Assembly (NCBI GenBank): GCA_009667805.1
Contig: CM019070.1
Location: forward strand, 57,044,735-57,108,734
Length of the DNA: 64,000 bases
Direction of reading: 5' to 3'
Source: Leptobrachium leishanense
Lineage: Eukaryota; Chordata; Amphibia; Anura; Megophryidae
Made by a program: the position numbers and the translations under genes. Positions 5,459 to 62,698 of the stretch are shown one piece after another (position 1 is the first letter of the stretch; each line of letters opens with the position of its first letter). The notes beneath the pieces were generated by a model. It was not told the origin of the DNA. It saw nothing but the letters and a program-made list of their open reading frames with translations, and made no database searches.

Positions 5459-6350
5459 CCCAGACCACACATGGATATATTGCCCCCAGGCCACACATGG
5501 ATATATTGCCCCAGCTCACACATGGATATTTTTGCCCCCAGCTCATGGATATACTGCCCCAACACATGGATATACTGCCCCAGCACATGGATATGCCCCA
5601 GCTCATGGATATGCCCCAGCTCATGGATATACTGCCCCAGCTCATGGATATACTGCCCCAGCTCTGCCCCAGCTCATGGATATACTGCCCCAGCTCTGCC
5701 CCAGCACATGGATATACTGCCCCAGCTCATGGATATACTGCCCCAGCTCTGCCCCAGCTCATGGATATACTGCCCCAGCTCTGCCCCAGCTCATGGATAT
5801 GCCCCAGCTCATGGATATACTGCCCCAGCTCTGCCCCAGCTCATGGATATACTGCCCCAGCGCTGCCCCAGCTCAAGGATATACTGCCCCAGCTCTGCCC
5901 CAGCTCATGGATATACTGCCCCAGCTCTGCCCCAGCGCATGGATATGCCCCAGCTCATGGATATACTGCCCCAGCTCTCATGGTCATGGATATACTGCCC
6001 CAGCTCTGCCCCAGCTCATGGATATACTGCCCCAGCTCTGCCCCAGCTCATGGATATACTGCCCCAGCTCATGGATATACTGCCCCAGCTCTGCCCCAGC
6101 TCATGGATATACTGCCCCAGCTCTGCCCCAGCTCATGGATATACTGCCCCAGCTCTGCCCCAGCTCATGGATATACTGCTGCCCAGCTCTGCCCCAGCTC
6201 ATGGATATACTGCCCCAGCTCTGCCCCAGCTCATGGATATACTGCCCCAGCTCTGCCCCAGCTCATGGATATACTGCCCCAGCTCTGCCCCAGCTCATGG
6301 ATATACTGCCCCAGCTCTGCCCCAGCTCATGGATATACTGCCCCCAGCTC
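5459..6350. repeat. CCCCAGCTCATGGATATACTG minisatellite array
   Basis: About 30 copies of a 21-bp unit with core GCCCCAGCTCATGGATATAC, often alternating with an extra 12-bp piece GCCCCAGCTCT to give 33-bp higher-order units. Units of 21 and 33 bp are multiples of three, so several frames stay open for 300-430 codons. Those ORFs (rich in HGYTAPA, MDILPQL or WIYCPSS) are not genes. Confidence 0.93.
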
Positions 6351-6409
6351 TTACCTCTGCTGGCCCCCAGGGCCCAGGCCCAGGGCAGGCTCTGCCGGCG
6401 TTCCGTTCT

Positions 6410-6568
6410 TCTGAGGCGAGCGGCCGCTGGAAACATGCGTCTTGGCCGCTCGCCGGAAACCACCTGATCAGCGCGAGGTCTCGCGAGAGGATCTCGTGCG
6501 CTGGTCAGGTGGTTTCTCTCCCATGTGAGCGGCCAAGCTGCATGTCAGCGGCCGCTCGCAGGGAGAGG
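6410..6568. repeat. GC-rich palindrome of outer hAT element
   Basis: Inverted repeat containing GAGCGGCCGCTGG on the left and its near-complement before 6568, around a centre with CTCGCGAGAGGATCTCGTGCG. It occupies the same place after the array as the palindrome in the inner element. Confidence 0.7.
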
Positions 6569-6639
6569 GACGGCCAGCGCGCGGCTCCCAGATTCCGGCG
6601 CTTATTGCCGGAATCTGGCGGCGGCGCTGGGCCCCCCTC

Positions 6640-6704
6640 CAGTGGCGGAATGCCAGGGCCCGGTCGCAACTGCGACCGCTGCGACCCTGGTACTTCCGCC
6701 ACTG
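6640..6704. repeat. 65-bp terminal palindrome of outer hAT element
   Basis: CAGTGGCGGAATGCCAGGG on the left is mirrored by a CCCTGGTACTTCCGCCACTG right end, giving a hairpin that ends exactly at the element's right terminus. It could be a small hAT MITE in its own right or a subterminal structure. Confidence 0.6.
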
Positions 6705-6864
6705 CTCCGTGGTGTCTTCCCATGTACAGTACTCCATTCTTGTGTCAACAAAAATGTTAGCATGTGCCAGAGATTTCTGTAAGTCTTTAGCTGACACTCT
6801 AGGATTCTTCTTTACCTCATTAAGCATTCTGCGCTGTGCTCTTGCAGTCATCTTTACAAGATGA

Positions 6865-20753: not shown

Positions 20754-22371
<1,618 letters not shown>

Positions 22372-22545: not shown

Positions 22546-23220
22546 TGTTACCGGAACCCACCTGGTTCACTCGGGACGAAGCCAGGCCGGCACGGTCAAG
22601 GATTGACTGGACACGGGTCTCTTCAGGAAAGGCAAACTTTATTGTGATGTCACAACAGGTGCTCACACAGGATTGTATCGCAAAGAGTGAGCCCCGATTA
22701 CACAGTGACATGAGGTTTTATACCCCAAATACATAATTAGGTACATCCCAATTAGCCCACCTCCTGGTGACACTATCCCAACCCACGTGGGTCTGTACCT
22801 CCCTTAATCGAATACAAAGACATTCCATACATTGGTCATAAATTGGCAAGCATCACGACATTCTGACACAAGAGGATTTACAATTGCTCTGGATCCTGCC
22901 TCTGCCCACCTCCCTTGCGCTTGTTTATTGTTTGTTTTAGATAAGGCTTGGTCTGGTTTCATACTCCTCTTTGTCTCAGCTGCAGGCTCCTATGACCTTG
23001 ATGTAGCTCTTCTTCATCCGGTCACCCTGTGCCAGCAACGGCCCGGATCTTCTCTAATTTAATTGCTTTACTGCTTGTCTAACACATTCCAAAGATTCTA
23101 TGTAAGCTTCATTCTAGTTTCTGCTAATATCTACTAATTAGATTCAAGTGAACCAATGTTCTGAGCAAGATGGCCGCCTGGCTCAAGATGGTGACCATCT
23201 ACTGGCCTGAGTCTCCTTCA
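22546..23220 (-). repeat. 3' LTR of provirus
   Basis: 675 bp, paired with 34486-35158. In the viral direction it begins TGAAGGAGACTCAGG next to the polypurine tract and ends GGTTCCGGTAACA. A TATAAAA box lies at 22716-22722 and an AATAAA signal at 22638-22643, about 75 bp apart. Confidence 0.95.
22638..22643 (-). terminator. retroviral polyadenylation signal
   Basis: AATAAA on the minus strand in the 3' LTR, downstream of the TATA box, as expected for the R region. The 5' LTR has the same hexamer at 34578-34583. Confidence 0.8.
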
Positions 23221-23232
23221 TTCCCCCCTTGG
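23221..23232 (-). other. polypurine tract
   Basis: On the viral strand CCAAGGGGGGAA directly precedes the TG of the 3' LTR. In the retroviral family this primes plus-strand DNA synthesis. Confidence 0.9.
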
Positions 23233-24986: not shown

Positions 24987-27533
24987 TTAGGTGCTCACAA
25001 CTGTGGTCTTTGTCAGCTTTAGCCTCAATGGTTTTGTCTCGTTGGAGATGACCTTCCACTCTGGTTCAGGATTGGCTGCAGCTACCTTCAGTCTGGAGTG
25101 ATGTATCCACGGGACCACCTTGGCAACCTTCACTGCTGTGGGGGTTGATAACAGGACAAGGTAAGGACCTCTCCATTTTGGGCCTAGTGGGTCATTTTTC
25201 CACTCCTTCACCCAAACCGAGTCACCTGAACAATACTTATGCAGTGGGGGATATAAAAAGTGAGGTATATTATCTCCCACCCAAGTATTTAACTTTTGCA
25301 TTGATTTACCCAATAATACAACCTGTTCAGTTAGTTTAGTTTCACCCAATGCCCGAAGGTCCCCCCTTATTCCATTAATTAGAGGGGTAGACCGTCCGAA
25401 CATAAGCTCGTACGGACTTAGCTTCAATTGGGGGGTTGGCCTGCACCTAATGTGCAATAGGACTATTGGCAGTACATCCAACCAGTCTAGTGACGTCTCT
25501 TGGCATAATTTGGACATCAAAGTCTTCAGTGTACGGTTCATTCTTTCGACTTTTCCCAAGCTTTGGGGCCTGTAAGCTGTATGTAGCTTCCAGGTGATGC
25601 CCAACAGGCGGGCAAGCTGCTGTAGACAGTTCTGTATAAATGCTGGGCCATTGTCCGACCCTATTTCAAGAGGAAGTCCATATCGTGGTATTATTTCATT
25701 CATTAGACTCTTCACCACTTCCGTTGTTTTCTCCGTCCTTGTGGGGAAAGCTTCTACCCATCCTGTTAGAGTGCACACCATCACGAGCAGATACTTGTAT
25801 CCTCTGCAAGGTGGTAGCACCGTAAAGTCTATTTGCAATGATGCCATTGGGGACAGTCCGATTGGCTGCTTTCCTGGAGGTTGAGATGGGCCTGTTCTCG
25901 GATTATTCTTGGCACATGTCATGCACTGCTGGGCTATTGCTTTGCAGATTACTGACATTCCTGGTACATAGAAATGTGGCTCCAGCTGTTGCTCCATCAT
26001 TTCCCTTCCTCCATGAGTACTTGCATGAAATGCTCTCACAATTTCAGGTGCTAATGTTGCTGGCAGGACTATTTGTCTATTCTCCAACTGGAACCATCCC
26101 TCTTCTCCATATGCACCTTGTTCTTCTGATAGCCACTTCTTCTCTTTTTCTGAGTACACAGGTGTCCATTCACTCAGTGGTGCCAGTAGGAGCGCAGCCA
26201 CCACTGGTGTTGCTTTGTATCTTCCGAGTTCCTCTTGGTTTCCCCAAATGAATTCTTCCTTTGGGAAATAATATCGCCAGGCAAAGAACAGTAGATCTTG
26301 TCTCTCCTCTGTGTCTTTTACTGCTGGTATAAAGAAGTTCATCACACTCTTCTTCATCCTTGGTAGCTTATTTTTAATAAGGGTCTCCTTGAGAAAGAAC
26401 CTTACCAAAGGGGCTTGGTATTCTTGTGCTCCCAATTCTCCCAAGCTCAGCAGTATACATGTAATCCTCAAATTGTTGTGGGGATTGGCTGTTAGATTGT
26501 CAAAGCGTGCGGCGAAATTTTCTGCTCGTTCAACTTCGGTCACTTCTGTATTTTCTCCATCCTCCCCCATTAATTTTATGACGAAGAATTTCAGCATCAT
26601 CTTGTAAGCTCTGCGTAGTCTTTGCTGAACTTCTGAGGTGTCACTCATGAGGCGTGCTTCTCGGGGGTGTAGAGGCGAGGAATGGAAATTCCAGCCTTGT
26701 GATTGTGTCGGGAATAGCCACTGGATATAATCATGGTTTCCTTCCAGTAGCTCATAATTGTTGCGCCATTTTTGTAGAATTGTTTCAATGAATTCGCCTT
26801 TTGGGTCAAATCTTCTCCAATTCATATAGAATTCGTAGTTTGGCATAGGGAGTTGATCCTCTTGCTTGCAGAGCAGAATCTTAGAGACTTGACCCGGGAG
26901 GGTCAGTGGTTTAGCAGCGGCTTTTGCGGCTTGGTCAGCACGTCTGTTGCCTTTTGGGATTCCATCATGACCTTTCTGGTGGCCACGACAGTGCATTACA
27001 CTGACAGCACTTGGTTTCCACACAGCCTCCAGGAGGGCTGTGATTTCAGCTGCATACTTAATTTGTTGCCCTGATGAAGTGAGCAGGCCTCTTTCTTTGT
27101 AGAGGGCACCATGTGCGTGAACAGTCATAAAGGCATACTTGGAGTCGGTGTAGATGTTCACTCTTTTGCCTTCAGAGATTTCCAGGGCCCTGGTCAGGGC
27201 TGTTATCTCAGCCAGTTGTGCTGACGTATGTCCTGGCAGGGGGTTTGCCTCGATGATTTCTTCTGCTGAGACAACCGCATAGTCGGAGACTTTCTTCCCA
27301 TCACACATATAACTGCTACCATCAGTAAATAACTGCAGATCGTATTTGTCTAGGGGTACGTCTTTCAGGTCTGGTCTGCTACTGAATACTTCTTCCATGA
27401 CTTGGAGGCATTCATGATTTGGATCCTCTTCACAGTCAGGCAGTAGTGTAGCTGGATTTAAGGTAGCGTTGAGGTCCAGATGAACCCGTGGATTCTCACA
27501 CATCATAGAAAGAAGAGGGGGTGCAGCGCCCAC
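24987..27533 (-). CDS. pol: pol fragment: RNase H - OGFr-like domain - integrase
   Basis: Uninterrupted 848-codon frame, the C-terminal half of Pol; the first ~10 codons belong to the non-viral junction, so the listed start is not native. Residues ~62-210 are RNase H with D71 (TDGS), E109, D130 (YTDS), H185 and D200, a full catalytic set. Residues ~225-445 match the OGFr N-terminal domain. Residues ~455-848 are integrase: the H503-X3-H507/C537-X2-C540 zinc site, D569, D627 and E663 with a 35-residue D-E spacing, then a GPY-type C-terminal domain (WRGPY at 787-791). RNase H removes RNA during reverse transcription and integrase inserts the DNA. env starts 136 bp downstream. No stop or frameshift occurs here, unlike gag, protease and env. 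Confidence 0.93.
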   Translation of the reverse strand: MGAAPPLLSMMCENPRVHLDLNATLNPATLLPDCEEDPNHECLQVMEEVFSSRPDLKDVPLDKYDLQLFTDGSSYMCDGKKVSDYAVVSAEEIIEANPLPGHTSAQLAEITALTRALEISEGKRVNIYTDSKYAFMTVHAHGALYKERGLLTSSGQQIKYAAEITALLEAVWKPSAVSVMHCRGHQKGHDGIPKGNRRADQAAKAAAKPLTLPGQVSKILLCKQEDQLPMPNYEFYMNWRRFDPKGEFIETILQKWRNNYELLEGNHDYIQWLFPTQSQGWNFHSSPLHPREARLMSDTSEVQQRLRRAYKMMLKFFVIKLMGEDGENTEVTEVERAENFAARFDNLTANPHNNLRITCILLSLGELGAQEYQAPLVRFFLKETLIKNKLPRMKKSVMNFFIPAVKDTEERQDLLFFAWRYYFPKEEFIWGNQEELGRYKATPVVAALLLAPLSEWTPVYSEKEKKWLSEEQGAYGEEGWFQLENRQIVLPATLAPEIVRAFHASTHGGREMMEQQLEPHFYVPGMSVICKAIAQQCMTCAKNNPRTGPSQPPGKQPIGLSPMASLQIDFTVLPPCRGYKYLLVMVCTLTGWVEAFPTRTEKTTEVVKSLMNEIIPRYGLPLEIGSDNGPAFIQNCLQQLARLLGITWKLHTAYRPQSLGKVERMNRTLKTLMSKLCQETSLDWLDVLPIVLLHIRCRPTPQLKLSPYELMFGRSTPLINGIRGDLRALGETKLTEQVVLLGKSMQKLNTWVGDNIPHFLYPPLHKYCSGDSVWVKEWKNDPLGPKWRGPYLVLLSTPTAVKVAKVVPWIHHSRLKVAAANPEPEWKVISNETKPLRLKLTKTTVVST
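26190..26870 (-). other. OGFr-like domain inserted in Pol
   Basis: About 210 residues (roughly 229-440 of the pol frame) not expected in any Pol. Telling blocks are MPNYEFYMNWRR, YELLEGNHDYIQWLFPT, RLRRAYKMMLKFFVIKL, NNLRITCILLSLGELG, APLVRFFLKETL and FAWRYYFPKEEFIWG. In order and spacing they match the conserved N-terminal domain (OGFr_N) of the vertebrate opioid growth factor receptor and its OGFRL1 relative. The domain is in frame, with no introns or stops, between a complete RNase H and a complete integrase. Acquisition from a spliced host mRNA is the simplest inference. OGFr binds enkephalin-type peptides in animals; what it would do in Pol is unknown. Confidence 0.9.
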
Positions 27534-27873
27534 CGGAAGAGTGTCTATCCCACTCGCTGAATATTGAATATGGGGGTTTCTCTAAATACCCGAGTGACAA
27601 TTTTGCAAAGAGAAATACAATACAGCGCTCAAAGACCTAAGTCCACGGGAAAGTGGGGTAGACAGAAAATATGTCCATAAACAGTAGTCCTTGTCTTTAA
27701 GGGTAGATCTTCTTAAAAATGCAGATGGAGTATGCACTGTAGGAAAAAACACAAAGAGGACCAAAAAATTGCGCAGTATGATAGCACCCAAGATGAGAGT
27801 AACTTATATTGATGTTTAACTCACATTCTGGGGAGCCCACAACCGGCTCTTGGGAATAAATCGGGCAGGGACT
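27515..27873. other. unrecognised block between gypsy fragment and pol
   Basis: Neither viral nor clearly gypsy. It has GGGGGTGCAGCGCCCACC near its left edge and TGCGCAGTATGATAGCACCC near 27772. The one minus-strand frame (27582-27791) shows no family resemblance. It may be part of a third repeat or the remains of the gypsy element's own break. Confidence 0.5.
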
Positions 27874-29029
27874 TTATATTAGGTGCCCATAGACCCTCCA
27901 ATCGATTTCTCCCGAATTCGCCAAAGGAGGAATGCTGTCCTCAGGACCCTCAGACACGCCACTTTTTCCAGATCTCTGATTTGAGCAAATCAGGTCCTTT
28001 AATTTAAACGGTACGTTCTTGGTGAGATCAGTCAGTGGTTGTACCAGCTTTGAAAAAGAACGGATAAACCTTCTGTAAAAATTAGGGAATCCTAAAAATC
28101 TTTGAACGTCCTTCCGTGATGTAGGGGTTGGCCATGAGAGAATCGCGGCTATTTTCCCTGGGTCCATCTCGATCTTGCCTGGGGAGAGGACATATCCAAG
28201 AAAGGCGATAAGATTAGTCTCGAATATACATTTCTCCCTTTTTTGCGTATATTCGATGTTTGCGTAATCTAGCAAATACCTCTTTCATATGATGTCGGTG
28301 TGTTTGAAGAGTGTCTGAGTAGACTAGGATATCATCGAGATATACTATTACGCATATATCTAATAAATCCCTAAAAATGTAATTTACCAGGTGTTGGAAT
28401 GTCGCCGGAGCATTGCATAATCCGTAGGGCATAACTAGATAGTCATAATGTCCGTAGCGGGTTCTGAAGGCGGTTTTCCATTCGTCACCTTGGCGAATAC
28501 GTAGAAGGTTGTAGGCACCTTTGAGATCCAATTTCGTGAATATCTTGGCAGTTTTCAATCGTTCCATTAACTCTGGAATTAGAGGAAGGGGATACCTGTT
28601 TTTTATAGTGATATTGTTGAGATCTCTGTAATCCACACAAGGCCTTAACCCTGCGTCCTTTTTCCCCACGAAAAATATGCCGGCCCCAGCAGGAGAGGTG
28701 GAAGGGCGGATAAATCCTTTTTGGAGATGTTCGTGTATGTATTCCTTCAGAATGTTCAACTCTGGCTCGGATAATGGGTATATTCGGCCATAGGGGATAG
28801 CGGCCCCAGGAAGGAGGTCAATCGGGCAGTCATAGACCCGGTGAGGAGGAAGGGCCTCTGCCTTTGTCTCGTTAAAGATGTCCTCGTATTCCATATAGGC
28901 GGGTGGAATGACAACATCTTTTTTTTCCATGTGTATATCTAGAATAGAATGAATACTTTTAACAGTTTGTTTCATGCACAGTTGAAGACAATGGGGGGGG
29001 AAGTAAACGATATTGCTTCTGGTTCCCAA
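27874..29029 (-). pseudogene. Ty3/gypsy reverse transcriptase
   Basis: Continues from the protease in a new frame. Recognisable blocks are [50 protein letters not shown] and the catalytic YLDD box ([12 protein letters not shown]). A frameshift at an A6 run near 28240 leads to FLGYVLSPGKIEMDPGK and FLGFPNFYRRFI. The similarity fades after about 27960, so the connection and RNase H domains are missing. It replaces, by position, the retroviral reverse transcriptase. Confidence 0.9.
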
Positions 29030-30601
29030 CGTATGACTGGATCATGGGTGCGTAACCACGGTAATCCCAGGATAACTGGAAATACCGGTGAGGCGACTAA
29101 ATCAAAGGAAATGTTTTCGTTATGGTCTCCACCGATAGACATTTTTAGAGGACCGGTTTCTAGGGTGACCAACCCTGATTTCAATGAAGAGCCATCAACT
29201 AACTTCACGTGAACAGGGTGCTCTTTATTGATTACTGGTACACACAATTTTGTGGCAAGTGATAAGTCCATGAAGCTACCGCTAGCGCCGGAGTCAATCA
29301 TGGCGGGTAGGGTGAGGTGTTGGTCATTCCACTGTAGAAAGATAGAAATGGAGAAATGTGGGGCAATCACTAATGGTTCGTTACGAGGATCAACGGTAGA
29401 GGAGGCGTTCGCTTTCTTACCTCCACGTTCTGGTTTTTCAGGGCAGAAACGAACGGTGTGGCCGGCCTGGCCACAATACAGGCCGAGATGGTTCGATCTA
29501 CGACGTGCCATTTCTTCTGGAGGAAGTCGTCTGTTGGTTGCTCCAATCTGCATGGGTTCCTCTTGGGTGGTACGAGGTGTAGAAGGTACCAGATCCTTAG
29601 TGGTATCAGGAGGTGTAGGAGGTAGAGCACGACGTGGTTGCACAGACATAGATAGATTTATTTCTTGCCGTCTTTCGCGAAGCCGTCGGTCAATGGATAT
29701 GGATGCTTGCATTAGTAGGTCCAACGTTGGTGGAATGCCAATTCGAGCTAATTCATCTTTTAATTGGTCAGATATACCACTGCGGAATTGATTGATAAGG
29801 GCTATCTCATTCCAGGCGGTATCAAGGGCGTACTGCTTGAACTCCATAACATAGTCCTCTACAGGACGGCGACCTTGTTTGAGGGCCTTGATCTCTCGCT
29901 GTGCGGGTGTCTTGACGAAAAGGGTCATCGTATATATCATTTAAAGCTGATAAGAAGGTCTCCCAGGTATCAAGGAGCGGACTTTGGAGTCTCAGTAGTT
30001 GGTGGGCCCATGCTTGGGGTTCTCCTGAGAGCAGCGATATAACGGTGTGAACCTTAACGTACTCATTACAAAAGGTGCGAGGTTTTAACGAGAACAACAC
30101 CTGGCAGTTGGTCACAAAGGACTGATATGAGCGACGGTCCCCGGTGAATCGCTCCGGTAGGAGGACGGGAGGTTCAGGGGCCATAGAAGTGGCAAGATCC
30201 TCTTTGGCTTGTACTCGTACTTGTAACGCAGTATGGCTTACTTGTAGCTCTTGTACTGATTGGGCGATGGCTGTCACCTGTTGCGTTAGGGTATGCAACG
30301 CTCCAGCTATATCTGCGGGCTCCATGTCATGGCTCAGTCGTTCTGTCATGCTATGGTATCGTAGGCTTGTTTGGAGTCCAGTATGCAGATATGTTTGATA
30401 AGGAAGGATGCAAGAGACGTAACCTGGAGAAGAATTGTGTCGGTTCAGGCGGAGTTCATTCGTTAACGAGAGAGGAAGCCAGGAGTCGGTAGCCGGGAGG
30501 TCAGTCAGAATCGAGCGCGGTACAAAAGGGGTTAGGCTGGAGACTTGGTCAGGTGGAAGCAAGGGTTCGTTCAACAAGGATTTCAGTGGTAAATAATACA
30601 A
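28972..30601 (-). pseudogene. Ty3/gypsy gag and protease
   Basis: Gag begins around MEPADIAGALHTLTQQV and contains the retrotransposon Gag capsid-like block (PERFTGDRRSYQSFVTNC to LSALNDIYDDPF). A frameshift near 29900-29930 moves the reading into the next frame (REIKALKQGRRPVEDYV). A zinc knuckle follows, YCGQAGHTVRFC, whose first cysteine seems changed to glycine. The protease has the DSGA active site (PAMIDSGASGSF). The frame closes at 28972, just after a G8 homopolymer near 28990-29002 where a second shift occurs. The wording resembles the vertebrate sushi-ichi/RTL-type gag; this is inference. Too damaged to be expressed. Confidence 0.85.
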
Positions 30602-31018
30602 GGAACTTGGGTAGCTTAGGGAGCTGATGACTGAGCGTCTTTCCTTTGGTGTTCTGAACCTTTATGGTGCGCAGGTAATGGGCTCCGCCCATTTGTGGGA
30701 AGAGGCCCCTCCCCTGCCCCTCCTACCCACTGGGTCACCCCAAGCTCCATCCGGAACTCGCAGGGGCCCCGCCCCGCAGGTGAGCCGGGAGACGCCGCCC
30801 CCGCCGAGACCCGCGAGTCCATAGCGGGACCCGGAAGGAGGACCGTGCCCCACGCTGCACCCGCGAGCGATGACCGCCATGCGAGGGGCCGATGGAAGGG
30901 AGAGGGAGGCAGTGGGGGGACCCCAGCGCTGGACCGAAAGGTCACCACAACCCGTGGCAAGGGAGCTCCCAATGCCTGACGTCCCCCTGTATGGAAGACG
31001 CCGACGGCTGTCGTGACA
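30602..31018 (-). repeat. probable gypsy 5' LTR and leader
   Basis: GC-rich stretch between the viral protease/RT junction and gypsy Gag. On the minus strand it starts TGTCACGACAGCCGTCGG, as many Ty3/gypsy LTRs do. With no second LTR to compare, the end and primer site are not defined. Confidence 0.5.
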
Positions 31019-31029
31019 CCTCGGCCGCG

Positions 31030-31603
31030 CCGTGGGGGTAAGGCATGACACTGGGGGAATATTTACAGCTAATCCGGGCGGGTTTTCTTCTGCCCAGACT
31101 CCAGGGATTCCCAAGAGTAGTGTGTACGGGTCTGGGGCGGCCAGCAGGGTTGGTGCCGTGCGCCATTCTTCTTCTCTTGGCATAATTACTGCAATTTTTA
31201 CAGGTTGGGTATTCTGGCTGGCTTGGCTGTACTGCCGTACAGAGCTGCCACTCTCAGGCAGGTCTAATCTAGCGTGGCCCCCGGGGAGAAATGAAATTTG
31301 GGCTTGCAATTTGCAAAGGATATCCCGCCCCAAGAGTTGGATGGAACATTCAGGCATATACAAAAATTCATGTTCTACATTATGCCCACCCACGCTACAT
31401 TTTCAAGAGGCAAGAAAAGGGTATTTAGCTGATACCCCCATTGCTCCCATTATATCAACCTCATTTCCCATTGGGGGTGCAATTTGCTGCGTTACAACAG
31501 AATATTCCGCACCAGTATCAACCATAAAAATTTCGTCTTTGTCTCCCACCCTTACCGTGACCGTGGGCTCGTGATTACCGAGTGGGATGGGCCCAGGTCC
31601 GTG
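31030..31603 (-). pseudogene. pro-pol: retroviral protease and first part of reverse transcriptase
   Basis: Follows gag in the same frame after the TGA at 31604-31606, the gamma-type layout in which Pol is made by stop-codon readthrough. The aspartic protease has the active site DTGA (codons at 31509-31520) and the C-terminal LLGRDILCKL motif. An in-frame TGA at 31403-31405 breaks it. The frame then gives a linker and the beginning of reverse transcriptase (VWAEENPPGLAVN) before viral similarity ends near 31050 at the gypsy junction. The palm, fingers and thumb of the viral enzyme are absent. Confidence 0.85.
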
Positions 31604-33392
31604 TCAATATATACCTTGTCCCTCAAATGACATCCCCGCCAAACCAACAAATCCGGCAGCATCATTTCTTTCATACCTGCCGTTTGTTACCTGGCCAATG
31701 GAGGCTTGCCCTCCCGATGCACCAGCCTCTCCCTGTACCCCATTTTTAGACAAAAATGCAGGGCATTCGCTTTTCCAGTGACCTTCACCCCGGCACCACG
31801 CGCACTGGTTGAGCCCTGGGGGCTCCTCTCCCTCTTCCCCCTCGACCTCTTGCTCTCCCTCTGTCCGGGGCACCCCTCCCATTGCCATTTCCCATATAGC
31901 CGACCACGCCGGTGTGCCCTTTTTGCTTCCGTATTTCTTCTAAATCCCGGTTATGGTACACTTTATTAGCAATTTCTACTAATTCGCTAATACCTTTGCC
32001 TAAAAACCCATCCAATCTCTGTATTTTATTCCGTATGTCTCTTTGTGACTGACTCACAAAGGAGGAATTAACTAACCACTGATTCTCCACAGCCTCAGGG
32101 TCAATAGGACTATATATCCTATATGCATCTAGTAATCTTTCTAGAAATGCACTTGGGGTCTCTTTAAGATCTTGCACAATGTCTGCTATTTTCCCCATGT
32201 TCGTGGGTTTCTTCCCTCCCGCTTTAACACCCATCATTACCGCTGTCCGGTATGTTTGTAGATGAGCAATACCTTCATTAGTATTGTACGGCCATTTGGG
32301 ATCTGTTTTGGGGTAATGTTCCTCAGCCCACGCTTCCGGCTGGGGTTTGCTATCCTCAACTGCTTGGGCAAGAAGGATTTTACGCACACTACTGTTTATA
32401 CGGGCTCTTTCCTCAGTTGTGAACATTGTCAGCATTAGTTGTTGACAATCTGCCCAGGTAGGGTTATGTGTCAGCATTACTGACTCTATCATACTGGCCA
32501 CCGCTGCAGGATTAGTGGAGTACAGTGGTGTGTGTTTTCCAGTTGAATAAATCTGTCGTGGTAAATGGGACATATGTGTATTGTACTGGGCCAGGTTCTC
32601 CATTCTCTAATAAAGGACCCGGCGCCTCCCGTAAGGGGAGTTGCATTTTACTTTTACCTGGATTGTGTTGATATACATCCCGGGCTTAAATATATTATTA
32701 GCCGCACGAGTGGTGGCCCCCTGCTCCACATCTCCACCATCCCCGCTCTCATCAGGGGTTACCCGGTGGTATACACTCCCATCGGGCATTTCGATTTTCT
32801 CCGCAGGGGTCCCTTCATCCTCTCCACCCGCAGCCCCCTCCTCTTCCGCGTTACCATGAGCCGGAGCCGAGGGAGCTGGCTGGGAAATAGCAGCTGCCTG
32901 CTCCCTCCTCTCCGCCCGCGCAACCACGGCATTCAGTGCCTCCCTGGCCACCCCATAACACGATGGGTAGGGCGGGGGAAGTGAATCAATCTCCTCCGGA
33001 TATTCTACCAATACCGGCTTTCTCGGTTCGCCTTTATTTTCATTATTCGGGGGTACCTGTTTCTTGTTTTGTCCTGCCATCATTATAAAATGACTCTTAT
33101 CCTTCACACAGTACCTCCATATATCTATATACGGGTACTGTTCAGGATGACCATATCTCCCGGTTATTTGGGAGTGCACTCTCTGTATTAACTCCGGGTC
33201 CATAGACCCCTCTTCTGGCCATTCTGGAACCAACAGTGGCCATACTATTGTACACAACAATTTCAATTTTTCCTTACTCAAATCCACACCATAGTGATGT
33301 GTCTCATACAACGCTCCAAAATTTCGTACAATATACTCCAAGGGTGTCTCACCCTCTTTAGCCTTCTTGGGTTTGGATGACCCGTTACCCAT
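31604..33392 (-). pseudogene. gag: retroviral gag, broken
   Basis: Gag builds the virus particle. The start at 33392 gives MGNGSSKPKK, with a glycine-2 myristoylation signal for membrane targeting and a basic patch. A PPPY late-budding motif lies at residues 139-142. An in-frame TAG at 32607-32609 interrupts the frame just before capsid, which resumes in the same frame (PTWADCQQLMLTMFTTEERARI and the KETPSAFLERLLDAYR homology region). An Arg/Gly-rich stretch is followed by a frameshift somewhere between 31888 and 31785. The nucleocapsid zinc knuckle CAWCRGEGHWKSEC then reads in the new frame, which ends with a TGA at 31604. Domain order is gammaretrovirus-like. Confidence 0.9.
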
Positions 33393-34463: not shown

Positions 34464-34481
34464 ATCCCGGACGAGCCCCCA
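34464..34481 (-). other. primer binding site, proline tRNA type
   Basis: On the viral strand TGGGGGCTCGTCCGGGAT begins four bases after the 5' LTR. It matches the proline-tRNA primer site used by many gammaretroviruses. Confidence 0.95.
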
Positions 34482-34485
34482 GAAA

Positions 34486-35158
34486 TGTTACCGGAACCCA
34501 CCTGGTTCACTCGGGACGAAGCCGGGCCGGCACGGTCAAGGATTGACTGGACACGAGTCTCTTCAGGAAAGGCAAACTTTATTGTGACGTCACAACAGAT
34601 GCTCACACAGGATTGTATCGCAAAGAGTGAGCCCCGACTACACAGTGACATGAGGTTTTATACCCCGAACACATAATTAGGTACATCCCAATTAGCCCAC
34701 CTCCCGGTGACACTATCCCACCCCACGTGGGTCTGTACCTCCCTTAATCGAATACAAAGACATTCCATACATTGGTCATAAATTGGCAAGCATCATGACA
34801 TTCTGACACAAGAGGATTTACAATTGCTCTGGATCCTGCCTCTGCCCACCTCCCTTGCGCTTGTTTATTGTTTGTTTTAGATAAGGCCTGGTCTGGTTTC
34901 ATACTCCTTTGTCTCAGCTGCAGGCTCCTATGACCTTGATGTATCTCTTCTTCATCCTGTCACCCTATGCCAGCAACGGCTCGGATCTTCTCTAATTTAA
35001 TTGCTTTACTGCTTGTCTAACACATTCCAAAGATTCTATGTAAGCTTCATTCTAGTTTCTGCTAATATCTACTATTTAGATTCAAGTGAACCAATGTTCT
35101 GAGGAAGATGGCCGCCTGGCTCAAGATGGTGACCATCTACTGGCCTGAGTCTCCTTCA
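34486..35158 (-). repeat. 5' LTR of provirus
   Basis: 673 bp; viral direction runs from 35158 to 34486. It is the promoter copy, and it differs from the 3' LTR mostly by transitions plus a 2-bp CT deletion in the CTCCTTTG segment near 34907. Confidence 0.95.
34656..34662 (-). promoter_or_regulatory. LTR TATA box
   Basis: TATAAAA on the viral strand about 500 bp into the 5' LTR, conserved in the 3' LTR at 22716-22722. It is placed correctly upstream of the polyadenylation signal. Confidence 0.75.
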
Positions 35159-50470: not shown

Positions 50471-50646
50471 GAACATACACTCTGTATACACAGAGTTCAA
50501 CATACACACATACACTATATTGCCAAAAGTATTCACTCACCCATCCAAATAATCAGAATCAGGTGTTCCAATCACTTCCATGGCCACAGGTGTATAAAAT
50601 CAAGCACCTAGGCATACAGACTATTTTTACAAACATTTGTGAAAGA

Positions 50647-51680
50647 ATGGGTCACTCTCAGGAGCTCAGTGAATTCCAGCGTGGAACTGTGATAGGGTGC
50701 CACCTGTGCAACAAATCCAGTCGTGAAATTTCCTCGCTCCTAAATATTCCACAGTCAACTGTCAGCTGTATTATAAGAATGTGGAAGTGTTTGGGAATGA
50801 CAGCAACTCAGTCACGAAGTGGTAGGCCACATAAACTGACGGAGCGAGGTCAGCAGACGCTGAGCCGCATCGAGCGAAGAGGTCGCCAACTTTCTGCAGA
50901 GTCAATCACTACAGACCTCCAAACTTCATGTGTTAGCGCAAAAACAGTGCGCAGAGAGCTTCATGGAATGGGTTTCCATGGCCGAGCAGCTGCATCCAAG
51001 CCATACATCACCAAGTGCAATGCAAAGCGTCAGATGCAGTGGTGTAAAGCACGCCGCCACTGGACTCTAGAGCAGTGGAGACATGTTCTCTGGAGTGATG
51101 AATCACGCTTCTCCATCTGGCAATCTGAAGGACGAGTCTGGGTTTGGCGGTTGCCAGGAGAACGGTACTTGTCTGACTACATTGTGCCAATTGTAACGTT
51201 TGGTGGAGGGGGGATTATGGTGTGGGGTTGTTTATCAGGAGCTGGGCTTGGCCCTTTAGTTCCAGTGAAAGGAACTCTGAATGCTTCAGCATACCAAGAC
51301 ATTTTGGACAATTCCATGCTCCCAACTTTGTGGGAACAGTTTGGAGCTGGCCCTTCCTCTTCCAACATGACTGTGCACCAGTCCACAAAGCAAGGTCCAT
51401 AAAGACATGGATGACAGAGTCTGGTGTGGATGAACTTGACTGGCGTGCACAGAGTCCTGACCTCAACCCGATAGTCTCTGCTCTAATTCATCCCAAAGGT
51501 GTTCTGAGAGCCAGGCCTTCTCGTCCAACATCAGTGCGTGACCTCACAAATGCGCTTCTGGAAGAATGGTCAAAAATTCCCATAAACACACTCCTAAACC
51601 TTGTGGACAGCCTTCCCAGAAGAGTTGAAGCTGTTATAGCTGTAAAGGGTGGACCGACGTCATATTGGACCATATGGATT
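50647..51680 (+). pseudogene. Tc1 transposase with frameshift and micro-inversion
   Basis: The start at 50647 gives [20 protein letters not shown], then a helix-turn-helix ([20 protein letters not shown]), [11 protein letters not shown] and VLWSDES (first catalytic Asp). It continues [15 protein letters not shown] to about 51350, where a one-base loss shifts the frame. The next frame carries [10 protein letters not shown] (second Asp) and QSPDLNPI, where the expected Glu-His-Leu-Trp is replaced by VSALIHPK. That replacement is explained by a 31-bp inversion (51474-51504). After it comes ARPSRPTSVRDLTNALLEEW and the C-terminus with KGGPTSY. About 340 codons, normal for Tc1; non-functional. Confidence 0.92.
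51474..51504. other. 31-bp micro-inversion in transposase
   Basis: Read on the opposite strand, these 31 bases restore the family's Ile-Glu-His-Leu-Trp-Asp-Glu-Leu-Glu order exactly in frame with both flanks. Read as given they encode VSALIHPKGVL. The inversion removes the third catalytic residue without changing length. Confidence 0.9.
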
Positions 51681-61112: not shown

Positions 61113-62698
61113 CAGTTCTGTTCAAAATTATTCAACCCCCACTGAAATTGAGTGTTTTGGCCAGTTTGACATTGATTTTGATCATTCAGTCATCTTGCTT
61201 ACAATTAAATCAAAGAGGCACGTGTAGGTCAGACAAATATAACATAACATTTATAATGAAATAACCACAAATGTCTTTTCTGTGCTCACATCATTATCAG
61301 TTTTATTCAACCCCCAAGTGACATTCAATCTTAGAACAGCTTTTAAACGTGAAGCATAGCTTGACACAAGTGTCTTGCAGCGATCTACGGGTATCTTCGC
61401 CCATTCGTCATGGGCAAAAGCCTCCAGTTCAGTCACATTCTTAGGCTTGCGCACTGCAACTGCTTTCTTTAAGTCCCACCAGAGGTTCTCAATCGGATTT
61501 AAGTCAGGTGACTGCAATGGCCACTCCAAAATGTTCCAGCCTTTAATCTGCAACCATGCTCTAGTGGACTTGGAGGTATGCTTGGGATCATTGTCCTGTT
61601 GAAAGGTCCAACGTCTCCCAAGCCTCAGGTTTGTGACGGACTGCATCACATTGTCATCCAATATCTCCTGGTACTGAAGAGAATTCATGGTACCTTGCAC
61701 ACGCTGAAGCTTCCCTGTACCTGCAGAAGCAAAACAGCCCCAAAGCATGATTGACCCCCCGCCATTGCTTCACAGTAGGCAAGGTGTTCTTTTCTTCATA
61801 GGCCTTGTTCTTCCTCCTCCAAACATAGCGTTGATCCATGGGCCCAAACAGTTCTAATTTTGTTTCATCAGTCCACAGAACACTATCCCAAAACTTCTGT
61901 GGTTTGTCCACATGACTTTTGGCATACTGCAGTCGACTCTTATTCTTTGGAGACAGCAAGGGGGTGCGCCTGGGAGTTCTGGCATGGAGGCCTTCATTAC
62001 GCAGTGTGCGCCGTATTGTCTGAGCTGAAACTTCAGTACCCACATCTGACAAATATTTTCTCAGTTCCTCAGCAGTCACACGGGGACTTTTCTCCACTCT
62101 ACGCTTCAGGTAGCGCACAGCAGTCGAAGTCAGCATCTTCTTTCTGCCACGACCAGGTAGCGTTTCAACAGTGCCCTTTGCCTTGAATTTGCGAATGATG
62201 CTTCCCATGGTCTCTCTTGGTATGTTTAACATCTTTGCAATCTTCTTATAGCCATTGCCCTTCCTGTGAAGAGTAATCACCTCTTCTCTTGTCTTCCTGG
62301 ACCATTTTCTTGACTTCACCATGTTTGTAACCACACCAGTAAATGTCTAGAAGGAGCTGAGTATCACAGTCATTTTAAAGCTGCCTAATTGGTGCTTATT
62401 ATGCTTTATTGCTGCTCCGTGACATCCACAGGTGTTTTCAATACCTGATTGAAAACACTTGAATGAACCTCTGTTCTTCAGAGTGGTAGTCTTTAAGGGG
62501 TTGAATAATTGTGTCAATGAAGAATTCACAAAAGAAACATTTACTACTGTATTACAAAACCAATTGATGTCATTTTAGTTGCATATGGTTCTTTAAAAAG
62601 TCCTTGTAGGATTTCATTCTGAATACAATTACAAATGTACACTAAATTCCCTAAAACCCTTTACAGCATTGGGGGTTGAATAATTTTGAACACAACTG
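61113..62698 (-). mobile_element. Tc1-like DNA transposon, nearly intact
   Basis: 1586 bp with inverted ends starting CAGTTCTGTTCAAAATTATT (right end CAGTTGTGTTC...), flanked by TA (61111-61112 and 62699-62700). The transposase on the minus strand has only one frame break. Confidence 0.93.
61251..62334 (-). pseudogene. Tc1 transposase with a single frameshift
   Basis: The start at 62334 gives MVTNMVKSRKWSRKTREEVI, with the paired helix-turn-helix (GYKKIAKMLNIPRETMGSII), the GRGRKK AT-hook-like stretch and RTPLLSPKNKSR. It continues LWTDETKLELFG (first Asp) to KNTLPTVK near 61770. One extra base there shifts the frame; the next frame begins at MLWGCFASAGTG and carries QQDNDPKHTSKST (second Asp), [18 protein letters not shown] (Glu) and DEWAKIPVDRC. 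The ~340-codon length is normal for Tc1, and all catalytic residues are present. Of the four Tc1 copies this is the least damaged, so it is probably the youngest. Confidence 0.93.

What the first reader, a model, noticed from the sequence alone, without database searches (positions are those of the whole stretch)
26190..26870. OGFr-like domain captured inside retroviral Pol
Seen: an intact 848-codon frame has RNase H, then about 210 residues with OGFr-type blocks (YELLEGNHDYIQWLFPT, NNLRITCILLSLGELG, APLVRFFLKETL), then integrase. Known: OGFr_N defines the opioid growth factor receptor/OGFRL1 family of animal proteins; retroviral Pol normally has no such domain, although some lentiviruses carry dUTPase at the same position. 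Inferred: a retrovirus picked up a host mRNA segment and kept it in frame as part of Pol. I know of no standard retroviral genus with this layout.
Basis: partly seen in the sequence, partly recalled or inferred. Interest (0 to 1): 0.96.

Follow-up and report, generated by a model that had tools for sequence, protein, structure and literature searches.

The report
Frog receptor domain inside retroviral polymerase
A large family of endogenous retroviruses in a moustache-toad genome (most likely Leptobrachium leishanense) carries, between the RNase H and integrase parts of its polymerase protein, a domain related to the toad's own opioid growth factor receptor; it was probably picked up once from a spliced host messenger RNA, its sequence shows selection to keep it, and it would likely serve the virus as a docking part.

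Summary
On the minus strand the 848-codon frame reads RNase H, OGFr_N (E 5.4e-70, 235.6 bits, cutoff 22), integrase, in a gammaretrovirus-type provirus with paired LTRs and a 4-base target duplication. The window's own Pol is broken: a foreign LTR-retrotransposon stretch stands in place of most of RT.
The domain is not private. Of 45 other fetched OGFr copies, 43 had integrase downstream and 40 RNase H upstream. Of 20 copies picked by integrase alone, 20 carried OGFr in place.
The ERV OGFr rows form one clade (100/100), sister to the toad's own OGFR (95/87; AU tests of two alternatives p 0.053 and 0.058). The host domain is split over five exons, the ERV domain is continuous, and some diverged copies keep host N-terminal residues. 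This points to one capture of spliced OGFR mRNA.
dN/dS is about 0.14-0.20: constrained, though less than RNase H or integrase.
Captured host mRNAs in ERVs are known; a host domain fused inside Pol was not found in our paper searches. Function is inferred.

The parts
34486..35158 (-). 5' LTR of the provirus (element runs on the minus strand)
   Evidence: 656/675 identical to the other LTR, TG...CA ends; flanked by ATAG on both outer sides
22546..23220 (-). 3' LTR
34464..34481 (-). primer binding site, proline-tRNA type (type recalled)
   Evidence: TGGGGGCTCGTCCGGGAT four bases inside the 5' LTR
23221..23230 (-). polypurine tract next to the 3' LTR
   Evidence: AAGGGGGGAA
32607..33392 (-). gag, matrix part (Gag_MA)
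   Evidence: Pfam PF01140 E 1.9e-11
31785..32603 (-). gag, capsid part (Gag_p30)
   Evidence: Pfam PF02093 E 1.2e-53
30959..31525 (-). protease and first part of RT of the ERV
   Evidence: tblastn to P0050, P0055 and P0008
27550..30700 (-). foreign LTR-retrotransposon stretch (gag, protease, RT; Ty3-type by domains, naming partly recalled) where the ERV's RT body should be; limits approximate
   Evidence: not found in the other 45 copies compared
24987..27533 (-). 848-codon frame, 3' part of Pol: RNase H - OGFr_N - integrase
26913..27338 (-). RNase H domain
   Evidence: Pfam PF00075 E 9.6e-25
26232..26849 (-). OGFr_N domain, the captured segment
   Evidence: Pfam PF04664 E 5.4e-70
25080..26063 (-). 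integrase: zinc-binding, catalytic core and MLV-type C-terminal domains
   Evidence: Pfam PF17921, PF00665, PF18697
23270..24382 (-). env remnant (SU end and TM); no Pfam match, named from position and a TM-like C-x7-CC motif
   Evidence: P0049 shows a similar env frame after integrase

Best explanation
A gammaretrovirus-type endogenous retrovirus family in this toad genome encodes a Pol with an OGFr_N domain fused in frame between RNase H and integrase; the domain was likely captured once from a spliced OGFR mRNA of a toad ancestor and is predicted to act as a non-enzymatic docking module carried with RT and integrase. Shown here: the domain order, its presence across diverged copies, absence of the host introns, one clade of all ERV rows placed, and purifying selection. 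Inferred: the capture route was RT template switching between viral RNA and a co-packaged OGFR mRNA (the usual route by which retroviruses pick up host genes, recalled). Inferred: the first form also held residues from the OGFR N-terminus, and later lineages trimmed the linker. Inferred: the domain is made with Pol, travels in the particle, and binds the host partner or partners that host OGFr_N binds, either anchoring the incoming complex at nucleus or chromatin or blunting host OGFR's growth-inhibiting action. Host OGFR is found in nucleus and cytoplasm (PMC11749475) and slows the cell cycle through p21 (PMC2253554), and gamma-type retroviruses depend on dividing cells (recalled), so both uses make sense; I put docking first.
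For: Domain order and HMM score. The insert sits in the RNase H-integrase linker, which is under 20 residues in the OGFr-less relative P0050. 43 of 45 other copies have integrase downstream and 40 of 45 RNase H upstream; 20 of 20 copies picked by integrase, without regard to OGFr, carry it. RNase H of 26 OGFr-bearing rows is one clade against 10 OGFr-less rows, 98/99. 38 OGFr rows are one clade, 100/100, sister to the toad's own two OGFR copies, 95/87 and, in a thinned tree, 96/92. Host OGFr_N is split over five exons, ERV OGFr_N is continuous. Upstream of OGFr, 4 of 46 copies align to the host N-terminus with a score that none of 200 shuffles reached (L015 and L010 clearly, L051 and L027 narrowly); L015 lacks the stretch (62-113) that isoform X1 of Pelobates OGFR has and X2 lacks. 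dN/dS: median 0.157 over 336 pairs, 0.142 with all 46 copies including stop-bearing ones, 0.203 by codon ML on 35 copies. 37 host-invariant columns keep the host residue in 90% of ERV cells against 48% in 165 other columns. Predicted fold confident: pLDDT 84.5, pTM 0.82.
Against: Function was not tested by any search. OGFr evolves two to three times faster than RNase H and integrase (median dN/dS 0.157 against 0.079 and 0.050). AU tests do not quite reject placing the ERV branch outside the anuran OGFRs (p 0.058) or before the Pelobates-Leptobrachium split (p 0.053). The copies used for dN/dS and trees were drawn by OGFr score, which favours conserved copies. The nearest anuran relative listed without OGFr (P0055, Pelobates) is a gene model that also skips the integrase zinc domain, so its lack of OGFr may be a model artefact. 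42 of 46 copies give no host N-terminus signal above all shuffles. No solved structure matched, so no biochemical activity can be read from the fold.
Confidence: 0.6

Rival explanations
1. Antagonist: the Pol-borne OGFr domain mimics host OGFR and blocks its growth-inhibiting signalling, so that infected cells keep dividing, which would suit a gamma-type retrovirus.
For: OGFR slows the cell cycle through p21 in human cells (PMC2253554, passages); the conserved N-terminal part was kept and integrase follows it, so the host C-terminal half is absent.
Against: Nothing here tests it; Pol is made in small amounts (recalled), and the placing inside Pol rather than as its own ORF fits a particle role better.
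Confidence: 0.25
2. Tolerated spacer: the segment is inert and kept only because Pol must stay in frame.
For: It evolves faster than its neighbours, and the linker before it varies from 31 to 349 nt in 38 of 40 measured copies (667 and 1,280 nt in the other two).
Against: dN/dS of 0.14-0.20 and 90% retention of host-invariant residues are more than frame-keeping needs; frame-keeping alone leaves amino-acid changes free.
Confidence: 0.1
3. Several independent captures or repeated gene conversion from host OGFR.
For: Copies differ strongly (48-89% identity to the window's domain).
Against: One ERV clade at 100/100 in 38 rows, and the long-linker group separates from the rest in the RNase H tree too (92/81 and 95/94).
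Confidence: 0.04
4. Private insertion or assembly artefact at this site.
For: The window copy is broken upstream by a foreign stretch.
Against: 43 of 45 and 20 of 20 copies elsewhere have OGFr with integrase; one locus gives a UniRef protein of L. leishanense letter for letter over 622 residues.
Confidence: 0.01

Closest known systems
Crocodilian ERVs with captured host mRNAs: KIT-ligand in CrocERV29, nectin3 in CrocERV31 (PMC4299795, abstract and passages)
   Same: Host mRNA captured by an ERV; ERV copies cluster with the host gene in trees; purifying selection reported for KIT-ligand.
   Different: There the host sequence is an extra ORF (KIT-ligand) or replaces env (nectin3); here it is an internal domain of Pol.
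Pol-borne dUTPase of non-primate lentiviruses and of ERV3 lineages (PMC4299795 passages; exact lentiviral position recalled)
   Same: An extra cellular-type domain inside Pol; in lentiviruses likewise between RNase H and integrase (recalled).
   Different: dUTPase is an enzyme of nucleotide metabolism; OGFr_N has no catalysis known to me and comes from a receptor protein.
Gammaretrovirus-type (class I) ERV Pols of lizards, caecilians and Pelobates (P0050-P0055, P0064)
   Same: 49-62% integrase identity, same MLV-type integrase C-terminus.
   Different: No OGFr_N among their listed Pfam domains; the RNase H-integrase linker is short in the contiguous ones.
Host OGFR / OGFRL1
   Same: OGFr_N domain; 37 host-invariant columns 90% kept.
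   Different: The host gene has introns within the domain (two tandem copies plus a partial contig in this genome) and no polymerase domains.

Membership tests
OGFr_N (PF04664) | Match above Pfam's curated cutoff over most of the profile | tested here: met
   235.6 bits against 22, positions 5-205 of 208
OGFr_N (PF04664) | Binds met-enkephalin / opioid growth factor | not testable with these tools
   needs protein
Gammaretrovirus-type (class I) ERV | Gag_MA, Gag_p30 and MLV-type integrase C-terminus | tested here: met
Gammaretrovirus-type (class I) ERV | LTR pair, target duplication, proline-type primer site | tested here: met
   primer type and the 4-base duplication norm recalled
Gammaretrovirus-type (class I) ERV | Place in an RT tree | not tested
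   the window's RT body is missing; only RNase H was placed, and weakly among outside rows
ERV with captured host mRNA | Intronless copy of an intron-bearing host gene | tested here: met
   host exons in L037 and L038
ERV with captured host mRNA | Copy groups with the host gene of the same lineage | tested here: met
   95/87 and 96/92; AU tests of two alternatives p 0.058 and 0.053, so not firmly exclusive
ERV with captured host mRNA | Host sequence forms a separate ORF (as in the crocodilian cases) | tested here: not met
   fused in frame in Pol
Retroviral Pol with dUTPase-like accessory domain | Accessory domain between RNase H and integrase | tested here: met
Retroviral Pol with dUTPase-like accessory domain | The domain is dUTPase | tested here: not met
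   Pfam gives OGFr_N and no dUTPase

The most novel reading that the evidence does not exclude
A retrovirus lineage turned part of its host's opioid growth factor receptor into a standing subunit of its polymerase, giving a new Pol layout (PR-RT-RNase H-OGFr-integrase) in which a host regulatory domain rides with the incoming viral DNA and steers or shields its entry into the nucleus; the lineage diversified into many branches with the domain and went on multiplying recently.
Probability: 0.45. Interest if true: 0.92.

Novelty: new variant of a known kind. Interest (0 to 1): 0.85.

Why it matters
Retroviruses that carry host genes usually pay for it with a viral gene (so PMC4299795, passages), or carry the passenger as a separate frame. 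Here a host regulatory domain was built into the polymerase polyprotein itself and kept through deep diversification. That makes it a natural experiment on what Pol can absorb, and the constrained viral copies can show which face of OGFr_N, a domain with no solved structure found here, is worth keeping.

Tried and rejected

Candidate protease site: a motif [SGP][KRN][VMI][LMQ]xC precedes OGFr in 23 of 46 copies, 0.1 expected from shuffles. The pattern was drawn after looking at the linkers and related forms were not counted, so I do not use it as evidence of cleavage.

OGFr-less kin in the same genome: the RNase H of a Pelobates ERV was used as an outside query. Of 20 rows taken (every seventh, rows 1 to 134 of the best 150), 2 were already in hand with OGFr (L051, L048) and 18 were fetched; 17 of the 18 showed OGFr and 1 (L092) showed neither OGFr nor integrase in its 401 bases. 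So no ancestor-like copy without OGFr was found, but only the best 150 of 7,164 candidates were scored. Copy number was not measured: 5,871 OGFr and 32,655 integrase first-look candidates are mostly unscored (150 scored in each), and the pattern count never ran.

Literature: searches returned no paper; one search listed 11 papers, none on this by title or start of abstract; I saw listings. 'OGFr' and 'opioid' do not occur in the main text of PMC10435555 or PMC6895153, nor 'OGFr' in PMC6001957. Only open-licence PMC papers are held.

Full report
What is there. The 848-codon frame 24987-27533 is real and lies on the minus strand. Pfam reads it as RNase H, OGFr_N, integrase zinc domain, integrase core and MLV-type integrase C-terminus, with OGFr_N at 5.4e-70 and 235.6 bits against a cutoff of 22. 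OGFr_N covers window 26232-26849. The element is a provirus with LTRs at 34486-35158 and 22546-23220 (656 of 675 aligned positions identical, 17 mismatches and one 2-base gap), ATAG on both outer sides, a primer site of the proline type (type recalled) and a polypurine tract. Upstream are Gag_MA and Gag_p30, downstream an env remnant without a Pfam match.

The window copy is damaged. The ERV's protease and first RT residues are at 31525-30959, its Pol resumes near 27509, and between them stands a foreign stretch with LTR-retrotransposon gag, protease and RT, Ty3-type by its domains (the naming is partly recalled). None of the other 45 copies compared holds that stretch, though those loci reach only about 1.5 kb to either side of OGFr. 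So the frame is an intact ORF but only the 3' part of a Pol.

The domain belongs to the family. A search of the own genome with PF04664 scored 150 hits out of 5,871 first-look candidates. All 150 were over the cutoff, 133 had no stop inside the match, and 11 lay in open frames of 1,439 codons or more (my count from its table; these are the best-scoring hits, so biased to well-kept copies). Of 45 copies fetched around such hits, 43 had integrase downstream and 40 RNase H upstream on the same strand within the fetched stretch. To avoid choosing by OGFr, I searched with the window's integrase core. The best 150 of 32,655 candidates were at least 97% identical. I took every seventh row (3 to 136, 20 rows) and fetched the stretch where OGFr should lie: 20 of 20 had it. 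With an outside query, the RNase H of a Pelobates ERV, the best 150 were 64-70% identical. Of 20 rows taken the same way, 2 were OGFr copies already in hand and 17 of the 18 fetched showed OGFr; one showed neither OGFr nor integrase.

Which genome. One locus (L028) encodes a UniRef protein of Leptobrachium leishanense letter for letter over 622 residues. The assembly size, 3.54 Gb, fits the published 3.5 Gb (PMC6895153 abstract in the listing). I take it as L. leishanense, though a near sister species is not excluded. In two protein searches (47 and 102 proteins listed), every protein that joined OGFr_N with RNase H or integrase domains was from this species.

Where the domain came from. In the host OGFR gene the domain is split over five exons (L037, with a tandem paralogue in L038/L039 and a partial contig L040). 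In the ERVs it is continuous. A tree of 38 ERV rows and 21 host rows puts all ERV rows in one clade (100/100), sister to the toad's own two OGFRs (95/87), inside anuran OGFRs. A second tree, with 15 ERV rows left out and four OGFRL1 rows added, gives 96/92 for the same sister group. AU tests on it do not quite reject a clade of anuran OGFRs without the ERVs (p 0.058) or of Pelobates and toad OGFR without the ERVs (p 0.053); the first of these named six rows and left out the Hyperolius row, which also falls among the anurans. So a single origin is well supported and a megophryid donor is likely.

The captured piece was probably once longer. In 4 of 46 copies the stretch before OGFr aligns to the N-terminus of Pelobates OGFR with a score that none of 200 shuffles reached: L015 (72 against at most 58) and L010 (50 against 40) clearly, L051 and L027 (45 against 42 and 41) narrowly. 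L015 lacks the segment (residues 62-113 of isoform X1) that isoform X2 also lacks. I infer that a transcript of the X2 kind was taken up and that later lineages trimmed the linker. The RNase H tree also gives the 26 OGFr-bearing rows as one clade (98/99), and a long-linker group again stands apart from the rest (92/81 and 95/94).

Selection. Pairwise dN/dS (NG86) has a median of 0.157 for OGFr (336 pairs from 35 of 46 copies; 11 dropped for stops), 0.079 for RNase H (108 pairs, 23 of 46 copies) and 0.050 for integrase (45 pairs, 12 of 46 copies); the other copies were split, short or had stops. For 9 pairs usable in all three, the values were 0.107, 0.023 and 0.042. Keeping the 11 stop-bearing copies, with stops masked, gives 0.142 (789 pairs), and 12 representatives under 80% identity give 0.155 (52 pairs); synonymous change is near saturation there. 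A codon model on the 35 stop-free copies gives 0.203. Of 37 columns invariant in the host rows, 90% of ERV cells keep the host residue, against 48% in 165 other columns. So the domain is kept, but with more freedom than its enzyme neighbours. That is what one expects of a surface-binding domain, and I use it as a hint only.

Nearest kin without it. An integrase search found 219 proteins, of which the best 120 are listed. Outside L. leishanense these are gamma-type Pols, the nearest at 49-62% identity (lizards, caecilians, Pelobates and an unnamed Logan record), and none of the listed ones has OGFr_N among its Pfam domains. In the contiguous ones aligned the linker is short. The Pelobates and Microcaecilia models skip the integrase zinc domain as well, so they say little about the junction.

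Structure. AlphaFold2 gives a confident, nearly all-helical domain (pLDDT 84.5, pTM 0.82). PDB searches found no trustworthy relative. Among viral models the only match at E <= 0.001 is a stand-alone OGFr protein of Marseillevirus LCMAC202 (E 2.3e-06).

How it likely works. Shown: a constrained host-type domain with a confident predicted fold inside Pol. Inferred: it is made with Pol, carried in the particle, and binds what host OGFr_N binds. Host OGFR is found in nucleus and cytoplasm, and its nuclear place depends on its signals and C-terminal repeats (PMC11749475, passages); it slows the cell cycle through p21 (PMC2253554, passages). The C-terminal part is not in the ERV, so nuclear targeting would have to come through a partner. 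Docking is my first choice, antagonism of OGFR the second.

Against what is known. ERVs with captured host mRNAs exist: KIT-ligand and nectin3 in crocodilian ERVs, as an extra ORF or in place of env (PMC4299795, passages). dUTPase inside Pol is known from non-primate lentiviruses (same passages). A host regulatory domain fused in frame between RNase H and integrase was not seen in the listings. One survey lists L. leishanense among species with invading ERVs (PMC10435555, figure legend passage); whether those are this family is unknown.

Noticed in passing
BFVD A0A481YX38: A giant virus, Marseillevirus LCMAC202, has a stand-alone 186-residue OGFr protein with a matching predicted fold: a second, separate viral use of the domain.
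   Followed up: no
L037, L038/L039, L040: Host OGFR is tandemly duplicated on contig C12, and a further partial copy lies on C2726, which may be an assembly duplicate.
   Followed up: partly
window 27550-30700: A foreign LTR-retrotransposon stretch (gag, protease, RT), without LTRs found by self-comparison, sits in place of the ERV's RT body.
   Followed up: partly
window 21311-22111 (+), 50563-51402 (+), 61251-62334 (-): Tc1/mariner-type transposase ORFs or remnants (HTH_Tnp_Tc3_2, DDE_3, HTH_SB).
   Followed up: no
window 5471-6760 (+): 429-aa ORF with a Mucin-like Pfam match (E 6.9e-10), overlapped by two other long frames; possibly a repeat.
   Followed up: no
linkers of 46 copies, e.g. 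window just upstream of 26849: A short motif ending in Cys before OGFr recurs in 23 of 46 copies (pattern chosen after the fact); possibly a protease site that frees the domain.
   Followed up: partly
table: Several hits with the same score and frame length, and 11 of 150 open frames of 1,439 codons or more, suggest recent multiplication.
   Followed up: no
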